Assembly: GCA_016927865.1 (NCBI GenBank)
Contig: JAFGLU010000111.1
Location: 1-62,788, forward strand
Direction: 5' to 3'
From: Anaerolineaceae bacterium
GTDB taxonomy: Bacteria; Chloroflexota; Anaerolineae; Anaerolineales; Anaerolineaceae
Length of the DNA: 62,788 bases
Positions within the stretch are counted from its first letter, which is position 1. Every line of letters begins with the position of its first letter. The notes beneath the pieces are model-generated. The model was not told where the DNA came from. It was given only the letters and a program-made list of their open reading frames with translations, and did no database searches. Of this stretch, positions 4,638 through 62,788 are shown in pieces. The position numbers and the translations under genes were made by a program.

Positions 4638-4749
4638 GTAACTATTCAGCCACAAAGGCTATTGCAGTGAATCGCAGGCTTCGCCCTTCTTTTTCCGCTA
4701 CCAGGGGGTGCGATTCAAACTCCAAACCCCGACAGGGCTGAGCAGCTAC
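4638..4749. mobile_element. 112-bp hairpin MITE family, old copy A
   Basis: The ends match the family: GTAACTATTCAGCC on the left and GGGCTGAGCAGCTAC on the right, 112 bp apart. The interior has drifted but keeps a short stem (TGAATCGCA/TGCGATTCA). Flanking 8-mers are GATATTGC (4630-4637) and GCGATTGC (4750-4757), six of eight identical, as expected for a decayed target duplication. It lies in the intergenic space between the divergent GNAT and glutathione peroxidase genes. Confidence 0.6.
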
Positions 4750-7492: not shown

Positions 7493-7588
7493 GGGGCAGG
7501 CACAAGGCCTGCCCCTATCACTCTGCTGTACGGGCGGGCCTTGTGCCCGCCCTTCCATTTCTCAACCGGGCAGGCACAAGGCCTGCCC
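7493..7588. repeat. Three tandem hairpins between convergent genes
   Basis: There are three 8-bp-stem hairpins with 5-base loops: GGGCAGGC-ACAAG-GCCTGCCC within 7493-7515, GGGCGGGC/GCCCGCCC at 7532-7552, and GGGCAGGC-ACAAG-GCCTGCCC at 7568-7588. The middle one is in the opposite orientation, and its central A-T pair is replaced by G-C on both arms. They fill the space between the subtilase stop (7476) and the convergent methyltransferase stop (7602) and could end transcription from both sides. Confidence 0.8.
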
Positions 7589-7601
7589 ATACCGTTCCAC
7601 C

Positions 7602-8471: not shown

Positions 8472-8521
8472 GTAACTGCTCAGAGGGTGGGGATTTCTTC
8501 CACCTCTGGCTGAGTAGCAAC
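8472..8521. mobile_element. Collapsed 50-bp copy B of the hairpin MITE family (core missing)
   Basis: GTAACTGCTCAGAGGGTGGGG at the left is the right arm of the family in reverse, and TTCCACCTCTGGCTGAGTAG at the right is the left arm in reverse, so this copy is inverted. The hairpin core between the arms is absent. Flanking 8-mers CTCGAACT (8464-8471) and CGCGAACT (8522-8529) agree at seven of eight positions. It lies between the methyltransferase and the divergent MalT-like regulator. Confidence 0.75.
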
Positions 8522-11298: not shown

Positions 11299-11318
11299 AT
11301 TTTCCCGCTCGGCGAACC

Positions 11319-11399
11319 GAAAATGAGGTGCTTGTGGGATGCGAAGCACCCCACAAGCACCTCATTTTCAAAAACTTTCCCCACCCTCTGAGTGGTCAT
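11319..11399. mobile_element. Hairpin MITE family, partial copy C downstream of the regulator
   Basis: A 24-bp stem (11319-11342 region against 11346-11369) beginning GAAAATGAGGTGCTTGTGGG, with one A/C mismatch and loop GAA, is followed by the family right arm ACTTTCCCCACCCTCTGAG. The left arm is not recognisable; the regulator's stop codon is at 11296-11298. No target duplication is seen. Its position suits a transcription terminator for the regulator gene. Confidence 0.65.
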
Positions 11400-14058: not shown

Positions 14059-14169
14059 TAACTGGTTCTCTCGCCAAGTTAGCGAGTTATATTTTGTAAG
14101 TGTTTGTGCGGCTACGCCGCACAAACACTTACAAAATAAATACCACTTATTTAGCGAGAAAACCACTAA
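14059..14169. repeat. Large hairpin element of a second family
   Basis: The core is a perfect 23-bp stem (14090-14112 with 14116-14138, loop TAC). Outer arms TAACTGGTTCTCTCGCCAAG (from 14059) and the reverse of AGCGAGAAAACCACTAA (to 14169) pair imperfectly, separated from the core by unpaired stretches. The architecture and length (111 bp) mirror the GTAACTACTCAG family, but the sequence is different. No convincing flanking duplication is seen. Confidence 0.6.
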
Positions 14170-18383: not shown

Positions 18384-18410
18384 TTACAGCGAATTATAGT
18401 ACCCGTCAAG

Positions 18411-18522
18411 GTTACTACTCAGCCAAAGGTGGAAGAAACCTGAATTTGAGGTGTATATGGGGTGCAAAGCACCCCATATACACCTCAAATTCAGGAACTT
18501 TCATCGACCTCTGAGCAATTAC
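18411..18522. mobile_element. Hairpin MITE family, intact copy D
   Basis: This 112-bp copy runs from GTTACTACTCAG to CTGAGCAATTAC. The core is a perfect 27-bp stem starting CCTGAATTTGAGGTGTATAT with loop AAA. The left arm continues CCAAAGGTGGAAGAAA and the right arm AACTTTCATCGACCT. Flanking 8-mers CCGTCAAG (18403-18410) and CTGTCAAG (18523-18530) differ at one position, consistent with a target duplication. It lies in the 261-bp space between the TetR gene start and the stop of the methyltransferase gene at 18598. Confidence 0.85.
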
Positions 18523-18597
18523 CTGTCAAGAAGCAATTTTCAACTATTCCCATCTTCACCTGACGGCAAGTGCTATGAGCCGGGCCTGTGTGGTCCC

Positions 18598-24158: not shown

Positions 24159-24169
24159 CGGCGCCTCGC

Positions 24170-24213
24170 GATTTAGAGTAATTGCTCTAATTTTAGAGCA
24201 ATTACTCTAAATC
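24170..24213 (-). promoter_or_regulatory. Tandem TetR operator palindromes
   Basis: Two copies of an 18-bp palindrome, TTAGAGTAATTGCTCTAA (24173-24190) and TTAGAGCAATTACTCTAA (24193-24210), stand exactly 20 bp apart and are mirror images, so the full 44 bp also forms one large inverted repeat (21 of 22 pairs). The site begins 11 bp before the TetR start codon. Spacing by two helical turns would let two dimers bind on one face. Confidence 0.85.
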
Positions 24214-24238
24214 GTCAAGGGCAAAGCAATGAAAGATG

Positions 24239-25651: not shown

Positions 25652-25741
25652 ATTGTTAAGCTCCTTTACAAATAAAATTGGCAAGTGAATGCCCAACGTT
25701 TATTTTATAACAAATTTAACCAATTTAAGTCAACATTTATC

Positions 25742-25853
25742 GTAACTACTCAGCCAGAGGCGGAAGAGGCCTGAATTTGAGGTGTGTGTGGGGGGCTTCG
25801 CCCCCCACACACACCTCAAATTCAGGAACTTTTCCCACGTTCTGCGCAGTTAC
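25742..25853. mobile_element. Hairpin MITE family, intact copy E with exact 8-bp target duplication
   Basis: 112 bp from GTAACTACTCAG to CTGCGCAGTTAC. The core is a perfect 26-bp stem beginning CCTGAATTTGAGGTGTGTGT, loop CTTCG. The left arm is CCAGAGGCGGAAGAGG and the right arm AACTTTTCCCACGTT. CATTTATC stands directly before (25734-25741) and directly after (25854-25861). It lies in the 298-bp space between divergent VOC and NAGPA-type genes. Confidence 0.92.
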
Positions 25854-25949
25854 CATTTATCCGATGTTCTCCAACCATCGTCGCATATACCAGATCTTTA
25901 CCCCCCGAGCCTCAGCAGTACCTAGAATAGGCTCATAAGGTAACCATCC

Positions 25950-46914: not shown

Positions 46915-47029
46915 GCAAATTTACCTGAGTTTGGGATAAGTCTCTTTTGAGGCATATTGCCCGGCAAAGCCGGCCAATATGCCTCAAAAAAGGGCACTTC
47001 ACTCCCTAACCCGAACTGACGTAAATTAC
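46915..47029. repeat. Hairpin element overlapping the APH gene stop
   Basis: The core stem TTTTGAGGCATATTGCCCGGC (from 46944) pairs with its partner ending at 46988 with one mismatch, loop AAA. Outer arms GCAAATTTACCTGAGTTTGG (46915) and, in reverse, GTAATTTACGTCAGTTCGGG (from 47029) match at most positions. The right end overlaps the kinase gene and supplies its TAA stop at 47026-47028. The architecture equals the 112-bp family, but the arm sequence differs. No flanking duplication is found. Confidence 0.6.
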
Positions 47030-47967: not shown

Positions 47968-48028
47968 CTCTTAGTTTTCTCGCTCCATAAAAAGCGCTCG
48001 CCACAGCATGGCGAGAGCTTTTATCTTG

Positions 48029-48139
48029 GTTACTACTCAGCCCATCGGGGAAAGAGGCCGAATTTGTGGTGTTTGGCGGGGCGAAGCCCCGCCAAACACC
48101 ACAAATTCGGGACTTTTCTACCAGTGCCTGAGTAGTTAC
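48029..48139. mobile_element. Hairpin MITE family, intact copy H with exact 8-bp target duplication
   Basis: 111 bp from GTTACTACTCAG to CTGAGTAGTTAC. The core is a perfect 25-bp stem starting CCGAATTTGTGGTGTTTGGC, loop GAA. TTATCTTG precedes (48021-48028) and follows (48140-48147) directly. Compared with copies D and E, the stem base is changed on both arms together (CCTGAATTTGAGG to CCGAATTTGTGG). It lies between the APH gene start and the stop of the YeaQ-like gene. Confidence 0.92.
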
Positions 48140-48159
48140 TTATCTTGTAAACCAACGCC

Positions 48160-62492: not shown

Positions 62493-62558
62493 CGTTCATC
62501 CCTCCCAATCAGAAAATATTTTCTATCATTCCCCAGGGTATTATATCCGAAAACCCCC

Positions 62559-62605
62559 GATATTGATGTATGTGAGGTGCTTCGCACCTCACACACATCA
62601 ATATC
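62559..62605. repeat. Hairpin element upstream of the hydrolase gene
   Basis: GATATTGATGTATGTGAGGT (from 62559) and its partner ending at 62605 form a 22-bp stem with one mismatch, loop TTC. The stem resembles the cores of the 112-bp family (GTGAGGTGC-type tip), but family arms are not recognisable on either side. Confidence 0.65.
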
Positions 62606-62666
62606 AGTTCTCTTGGGTAGTTTGACAATGTCACCTTAAAATTTCGAGCTCTTGGCCCCACCCCCA

Positions 62667-62763
62667 CCCCTCCCCGCTGGCAAAAACTCGCAAAATTTGG
62701 TTCAGGGGCGGGGAGGGGAGAAGATTTCGCAAAAGTGAGGGGCTGAAAGCCCCTCACTTTTGC
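62667..62763. repeat. Nested inverted repeats at the window end
   Basis: CCCCTCCCCGC (62667-62677) pairs with GCGGGGAGGGG (62708-62718), and directly after it GCAAAAGTGAGGGGCT (62729-62744) pairs perfectly with AGCCCCTCACTTTTGC (62748-62763), loop GAA. The last bases of the window (CCCTCCCCCGGCAAA) start a further similar arm. No gene is present from 62493 to the end. Confidence 0.7.
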
Positions 62764-62788
62764 AGAATTCTTTCCCTCCCCCGGCAAA

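What the first reader, a model, noticed from the sequence alone, without database searches (positions are those of the whole stretch)
48021..48147. A 112-bp MITE-like family with GTWACTACTCAG ends and 8-bp target duplications
Seen: copies at 18411-18522, 25742-25853 and 48029-48139 share both ends, length (111-112 bp) and a hairpin core. They are flanked by direct 8-mers: CATTTATC and TTATCTTG are exact, CCGTCAAG/CTGTCAAG differs by one base. A fourth, older copy (4638-4749) keeps six of eight. Exact duplications at unrelated sites show transposition rather than chance palindromes. Known: 8-bp duplications and ends starting GTAA are features of IS66-type elements. Inferred: these are non-autonomous passengers of such an enzyme. 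No transposase is in the window.
Basis: partly seen in the sequence, partly recalled or inferred. Interest (0 to 1): 0.8.

Follow-up and report, generated by a model that had tools for sequence, protein, structure and literature searches.

The report
Hairpin-cored passengers of IS66-type transposase
About a hundred 112-bp jumping hairpins litter this bacterium's genome; they use the ends of a known transposase family (IS66), copied 8 bases of target DNA on arrival, and carry a near-perfect palindrome whose two arms change together and whose middle flips, which makes them a natural record of how DNA palindromes are rewritten.

Summary
In detail: the copies and their 8-bp direct repeats are where stated. 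Of 104 with both flanks, 33 have 8/8 and 25 have 7/8 identical flanking 8-mers; no exact pair occurs among other pairings of the same flanks. One own-genome copy interrupts a hairpin whose mirror arm shows the empty site.

The IS66 reading is supported. IS66 elements with GTNACTRCTCAG at both ends exist in relatives, two of them (genes decayed) in the same family. ISDge4 (ISBst12 group of IS66) has nearly the same ends and an 8-bp repeat (PMC12898284, passages). No IS66 transposase was found in this 84.5%-complete genome.

New here: core arms pair at 2662 of 2782 positions although copies differ, and the 3-base loop is GAA in 45, TTC in 44 and something else in 18 copies. A second genus carries an asymmetric core in both orientations inside ends differing at one base. 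This fits template switching. The same ends enclose unrelated, often hairpin-forming interiors in other phyla.

The parts
48029..48139 (+). copy 1, 111 bp (subfamily GTTACTACTCAGCCCATCGGGG); flanks 48021-48028 and 48140-48147 TTATCTTG exact
18411..18522 (+). copy 2, 112 bp; flanks 18403-18410 CCGTCAAG and 18523-18530 CTGTCAAG (7/8); core arms 18439-18465 and 18469-18495 100% complementary, loop AAA
25742..25853 (+). copy 3, 112 bp; flanks 25734-25741 and 25854-25861 CATTTATC exact; core arms 25770-25796 and 25800-25826 100% complementary, loop TTC
4638..4749 (+). old copy, 112 bp, ends kept, hairpin core lost; flanks GATATTGC/GCGATTGC (6/8)
   Evidence: (E 0.13)
8472..8521 (-). 50-bp form with both ends but no core; flanks CTCGAACT/CGCGAACT (7/8)
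11301..11399 (+). eroded copy: core (24-nt arms, 96% complementary) and right end recognisable, left end lost
62550..62614 (-). probable eroded copy: core-like hairpin, ends not recognisable
   Evidence: E 5e-10; the model rewards hairpins

Best explanation
This is a family of miniature inverted-repeat elements moved in trans by a transposase of the ISBst12 (single-ORF) group of IS66. The enzyme recognises the 12-14 bp ends GTWACTACTCAGCC...CTGAGYAGTTAC and inserts the element with an 8-bp target duplication (shown from sequence: ends, duplication, two empty-site alignments, IS66 genes with the same ends elsewhere; inferred: that this enzyme moved these copies). Between the ends lies a roughly 55-bp near-perfect palindrome with a 3-base loop. 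Its arms are kept identical, and the loop or whole core is flipped, by template switching between the arms during DNA synthesis (inferred from arm homogenisation plus spacer inversion). Occasional loss of the palindrome leaves about 50-bp core-less forms.
For: 58 of 104 copies with at least 7/8 flanking 8-mers against 0.13% in other pairings. Empty-site alignments 45/51 (own genome, C53) and 90/120 (WFSA L170 against L158), crossing the junction without a gap at it. L188: IS66 protein of 506 aa (NF033517, PF03050, PF13005) whose element terminus GTTACTACTCAGCC lies 8 bp beyond the stop codon; L202 has the same arrangement with a gene in two frames; only one end was seen in each., 30 loci: IS66 flanked by inward GTNACTRCTCAG ends with no mismatch in L204, L212, L213, L217, L219; L207 (one mismatch, 1604 bp) has an exact GATTTTTA duplication, L213 7/8. 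L212 (one internal stop) and L219 (two frames) are in the window's family. ISDge4: GTGACTACTCAGCA/GTAACTGCTCAGCA, 8-bp repeat, single ORF, seen to transpose (PMC12898284 passages). Core: 2662 of 2782 arm positions paired, 89 distinct left arms in 107, loop GAA 45: TTC 44, other 18; 125 both-arm identical changes against 19 one-arm in 67 copies; 6 of 9 repeated arm sequences occur with both loops; an asymmetric core and its exact reverse complement inside outer ends that differ at one base (L101, L115). Arm homogenisation and spacer inversion, including ttc/gaa, are reported signatures of template switching (PMC8604942 passages). Core-shortened forms: window 8472-8521.
Against: No IS66 gene in the own genome or in the 3 congeners listed (G001, G002, G004). 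Similarity to the IS66 elements is limited to the first 12-14 bases; none is the direct parent, and the two in the same family are decayed. Four of the six named IS66 pairs show no 8-bp duplication (0-3 of 8). In the core, private paired changes (11) do not exceed private unpaired ones (15), so many paired changes may be inherited from source copies. G.T mismatches (21) outnumber A.C (13), other 15, a weak hint of RNA-level pairing. Copies were found with a model that rewards pairing.
Confidence: 0.85

Rival explanations
1. The hairpin core is maintained by selection on RNA or DNA structure (transcription terminator, processing site, or a structure the transposase needs) and not by template switching.
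For: Core pairing does not fall as flanks decay: 23.1, 23.0, 23.6 and 23.2 of 24 pairs for flank matches 8, 7, 6 and 5 or fewer, while left-end matches fall from 11.4 to 9.3 of 12. G.T exceeds A.C mismatches, 21 to 13.
Against: Loop orientation 45:44 and a flipped asymmetric core are not expected from selection on pairing alone. Forms without a core exist. The model used to find copies favours paired cores.
Confidence: 0.3
2. The elements are moved by a non-IS66 transposase that happens to make 8-bp duplications.
For: No IS66 gene in this genome; other IS families also make 8-bp duplications (recalled).
Against: IS66 genes bounded by the same 12 bases in the same order and family, and ISDge4.
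Confidence: 0.06
3. Chance or structural palindromes (terminators, REP-like repeats) with no history of transposition.
For: Copies have strong hairpins.
Against: Exact 8-bp flanking repeats in 33 of 104, empty sites.
Confidence: 0.01

Closest known systems
ISDge4 (Deinococcus geothermalis), ISBst12 group of the IS66 family (PMC12898284, passages)
   Same: Ends GTGACTACTCAGCA / GTAACTGCTCAGCA against GTWACTACTCAGCC / GTAACTGCTCAGAG here; 8-bp direct repeat; slightly unequal left and right ends.
   Different: ISDge4 encodes a 449-aa transposase; the window elements encode none and carry a palindrome instead.
Bacterial MITEs in general (review PMC10969869, word search only: IS66 does not occur)
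   Same: Short, non-coding, inverted ends, target duplication, high copy number, hairpin potential.
   Different: The core evolves as a separate unit whose arms match within a copy, differ between copies, and flip.
Template-switch inversion at short inverted repeats (PMC8604942, passages; PMC8794818, abstract and opening)
   Same: Arm homogenisation and spacer inversion, including ttc/gaa.
   Different: Described there in yeast coding genes and RNA genes; here in dispersed mobile copies, with orientation near 50:50.

Membership tests
MITE (miniature inverted-repeat transposable element) | terminal inverted repeats on a short non-coding unit | tested here: met
   111-112 bp, no room for a transposase
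MITE (miniature inverted-repeat transposable element) | target site duplication | tested here: met
   8 bp; 33 exact and 25 with 7/8 of 104
MITE (miniature inverted-repeat transposable element) | many dispersed copies | tested here: met
MITE (miniature inverted-repeat transposable element) | autonomous relative with the same ends in the same genome | tested here: not met
   none in the own genome, which is 84.5% complete; found in other genomes. Not required for a MITE, since parents are often lost (recalled)
IS66 family, ISBst12 group | GTAA-type ends (for this group GTNACTRCTCAG) | tested here: met
   (116 against 6 control); ISDge4 ends
IS66 family, ISBst12 group | 8-bp target duplication | tested here: met
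IS66 family, ISBst12 group | encodes an IS66 DDE transposase | tested here: not met
   element is non-coding; PF03050 absent from the genome. Hence a passenger of IS66, not an IS66 member
IS66 family, ISBst12 group | mobilised by such a transposase | not testable with these tools
   needs a transposition assay
Known RNA families (Rfam 15) | match at gathering score | tested here: not met
   0 matches in the window

The most novel reading that the evidence does not exclude
One pair of ends, GTNACTRCTCAG, acts as a general mobile frame: across several phyla it encloses unrelated, often palindromic modules that it acquires, and the ISBst12-type copy mechanism itself rewrites and flips the enclosed palindrome at each copying, so cores keep evolving as perfect hairpins within a fixed shell.
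Probability: 0.2. Interest if true: 0.7.

Novelty: new variant of a known kind. Interest (0 to 1): 0.55.

Why it matters
Two-ended matches with these ends turn up in records named Chloroflexi, Armatimonadetes, Elusimicrobia, Gamma- and Deltaproteobacteria, Mariprofundales and Firmicutes (mostly metagenome bins, so single hits may be misbinned). The exact end strings I searched hit only unrelated papers by title; the nearest printed ends I saw are those of ISDge4. Many independently placed copies, each a palindrome inside an asymmetric frame that records orientation, make rates of palindrome inversion, arm repair and palindrome loss measurable in nature.

Tried and rejected
IS66 in the own genome: none. 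Pairing of the ends into a full-length IS inside held loci: one weak chance pair in 170 loci. The IS66 of G080 (L172) has GTAACTACCTACCC nearby, not the MITE end; the IS66 of G065 has GTAACCGTTCAG ends.

Congener empty site: the only matching congener locus (L315) lacks the neighbouring gene, so inconclusive. Of 29 junction-spanning rows from 227 joined flanks most are hits of a flank to its own locus; four were aligned: two accepted, one (JAUCGK, 51/64 with 3 gaps) weak, one (MNXL) a local mosaic.

Fixed length: a first impression of a strict 110-120 bp came partly from the search pattern (98-126 bp). Wider patterns in 346 class genomes matched lengths 38-98 in 12, 99-159 in 35 and 160-220 bp in 14 genomes, so length peaks but is not fixed.

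Capture of free repeats: a first test used too lenient an end definition and was discarded (it had found 3 free places). The stricter one found 10 of 133 core-like places without an end nearby, in 7 of 20 genomes; loci were chosen for holding an element, so this is inconclusive. Rfam: nothing.

Full report
OBSERVATION. The sequence was read at all four places. Copies 18411-18522, 25742-25853 and 48029-48139 and their flanking 8-mers are exactly as described, and the old copy 4638-4749 keeps 6 of 8. The same window holds a 50-bp form with both ends but no core (8472-8521, flanks 7/8), an eroded copy (11301-11399) and two weaker hairpin hits (62550-62614, 46916-47020).

GENOME-WIDE COUNT. The window is contig C15 of a 3.97-Mb, 147-contig, 84.5%-complete genome. 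The end GTWACTACTCAGCC with up to one mismatch occurs 116 times against 6 for the reversed control. A covariance model from 28 copies gave 150 rows, the cap, in the own genome; removing second-strand rows and contig-end core fragments leaves 107 places, one of them cut at a contig end. Six contigs (C42, C50, C51, C92, C101, C112) begin or end inside the core, so the repeats seem to break the assembly.

TARGET DUPLICATION. Of the 107, 104 have both flanks (3 dropped). Flanking 8-mers match 8/8 in 33, 7/8 in 25, 6/8 in 13 and 5 or fewer in 33. In all other pairings of the same flanks 8/8 does not occur and 7/8 is 0.13%. Exact boundary duplications are 8 long in 33, 7 in 2, 4 in 2, and 5, 6 or 9-12 in none. 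The exact 8-mers are A+T-rich in positions 2-7 (76-85%) and not at positions 1 and 8 (45% and 30%).

EMPTY SITES. Joining flanks with one 8-mer removed and comparing with all held loci gave two informative cases. In the own genome the copy at C53:28609-28720 sits in one arm of another hairpin; the joined flanks match the intact mirror arm at 45 of 51 positions without gaps. In Anaerolineae S016_13 the joined flanks of L170 match a second copy of the host repeat (L158) at 90 of 120 positions with no gap at the junction. In congeners, BLAST with one copy and its flanks found no copy of the element in any of 4 genomes, one of them 61% complete, so the family expanded in this species or was lost or diverged in the others; the one congener locus matched is not syntenic.

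THE ENZYME. No IS66 transposase was found in the own genome by profile or protein. Of 29 other genomes that carry such end pairs, 13 have IS66 matches, and several of these lie directly at such ends: L188 (IS66, 506 aa; NF033517, PF03050, PF20042, PF13005) and L202 (gene in two frames) have a terminus GTTACTACTCAGCC or GTAACTACTCAGCC 8 bp beyond the stop codon, the end motif overlapping the stop; L191 has GTTACTACTCAGGC upstream of its gene. In these three only one end was seen. L184 (Thiomargarita) is a 1250-bp remnant with GTAACTACTCAAG ends and an exact CATTTGAC duplication. Searching the L188 protein in 301 genomes of the order gave matches in 46, none in the own genome or the 3 listed congeners. 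Among the 30 fetched loci, IS66 elements of 1.5-1.6 kb with inward GTNACTRCTCAG ends without mismatch are L204, L212, L213, L217 and L219; L207 (one mismatch) has an exact duplication, L213 7/8; the other four show 0-3 of 8. Others have more distant ends, such as L209, L215 and L230. L212 and L219 belong to the window's family but L212 has an internal stop and L219 is in two frames. Independently, ISDge4 of Deinococcus geothermalis, placed by its authors in the ISBst12 group of IS66, has ends GTGACTACTCAGCA and GTAACTGCTCAGCA, an 8-bp repeat and observed transposition (PMC12898284, passages only). Many window-type elements share its asymmetry: left GTWACTACTCAGCC, right (read inward) GTAACTGCTCAGAG.

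THE CORE. Between the ends is a near-perfect palindrome. Over 26 arm positions in 107 copies, 2662 of 2782 pairs are complementary, although there are 89 distinct left arms; 55 copies are perfect over 26 bp with 45 different sequences. In the largest equal-length class (67 copies, 24 positions) 125 changes are shared by both arms and 19 are on one arm; by hand, independent mutation at that rate would give about 4. Inheritance from source copies explains part of this: changes private to one copy are 11 paired and 15 unpaired. Relative to the asymmetric outer ends the loop reads GAA in 45 and TTC in 44 copies, other in 18, and 6 of 9 arm sequences seen more than once occur with both loops. In a genome of another family of the order (K_DeepCast m1_342; 135 exact matches), among 40 end pairs held, three core types occur in both orientations, and an asymmetric 28-bp core and its exact reverse complement occur once each (L101, L115) inside outer ends that differ at one base. 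Arm homogenisation together with spacer inversion, including ttc/gaa, is what polymerase template switching between inverted repeats is reported to produce (PMC8604942, passages; also PMC8794818, abstract and opening). I infer the same here. Selection on structure remains a rival: pairing does not fall in copies with decayed flanks, but those copies were found with a hairpin-rewarding model. Copies with the core reduced or gone (L019, L025, L030, L311, L313 and window 8472-8521) suggest that the core can be lost after insertion.

DISTRIBUTION. In 129 end-pairs from 31 genomes (a few overlapping or spurious) 79 have exact and 94 at least 7/8 flanking 8-mers; 21 of 31 genomes have an exact one, while for example Sedimenticola, Methylobacter, the Mariprofundales records and the Deltaproteobacteria record have none. 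Interiors differ between lineages; folding one interior per genome, 21 of 31 have z of -3 or lower and 6 are above -2, so many but not all are hairpin-forming. In 346 genomes of the class, matches of 38-98, 99-159 and 160-220 bp occur in 12, 35 and 14 genomes, with zero control matches in every listed row; sums by hand are 53, 507 and 70, symmetric ones counted on both strands and flanks not checked. In the order and family sample, 4 of 101 genomes, the own one included, had exact matches. Whether the interiors were captured from free repeats is open: 10 of 133 core-like places lack an end nearby.

LITERATURE. Text searches for four exact end strings returned 15 papers, 14 listed, unrelated by title; they would not have matched the ISDge4 ends, which I found by family name. 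IS66 with MITE, non-autonomous, ISBst12 or palindrome gave no description of this family in the titles and abstract openings listed (20 of 23, 8 of 8 and 12 of 59). The 2024 review of prokaryotic MITEs does not contain IS66 (word search). The Thiomargarita genome paper describes other MITEs and does not contain IS66 (passages). Subscription papers and ISfinder were not searchable.

VERDICT. As a MITE it is a new member of a known kind. The separately evolving, flipping palindrome inside a frame used across phyla makes it a new variant.

Noticed in passing
window 14063-14165: A second MITE-like hairpin with ends TGGTTYTCTCGC and CTAAC on both sides; the 12-base end with up to 1 mismatch occurs 65 times in the genome against 28 for the control, so it is possibly a small family.
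   Followed up: partly
window 46916-47020: Hairpin with arms of 24 nt (92% complementary); weak hit of the family model (E 1.5e-5), relation unclear.
   Followed up: partly
window 24169-24214, 62709-62783, 7494-7592: Other long inverted repeats (22-nt arms, 100%; 36-nt arms near the contig end; a cluster of G+C-rich arms), not compared with the element.
   Followed up: no
L027:1501-1674: Two elements 15 bp apart in the own genome; the second is a 47-bp core-less form.
   Followed up: no
G421: One class genome carries these ends around mosaics of GTCATTGCGAG...AATCTC units of many lengths (about 65-215 bp), as if the interior were assembled from modules.
   Followed up: no
G314 C14, C76, C204: Three places with the same short C-terminal match (about 40 aa) to the IS66 transposase, perhaps internal-deletion derivatives that keep one transposase end.
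   Followed up: no
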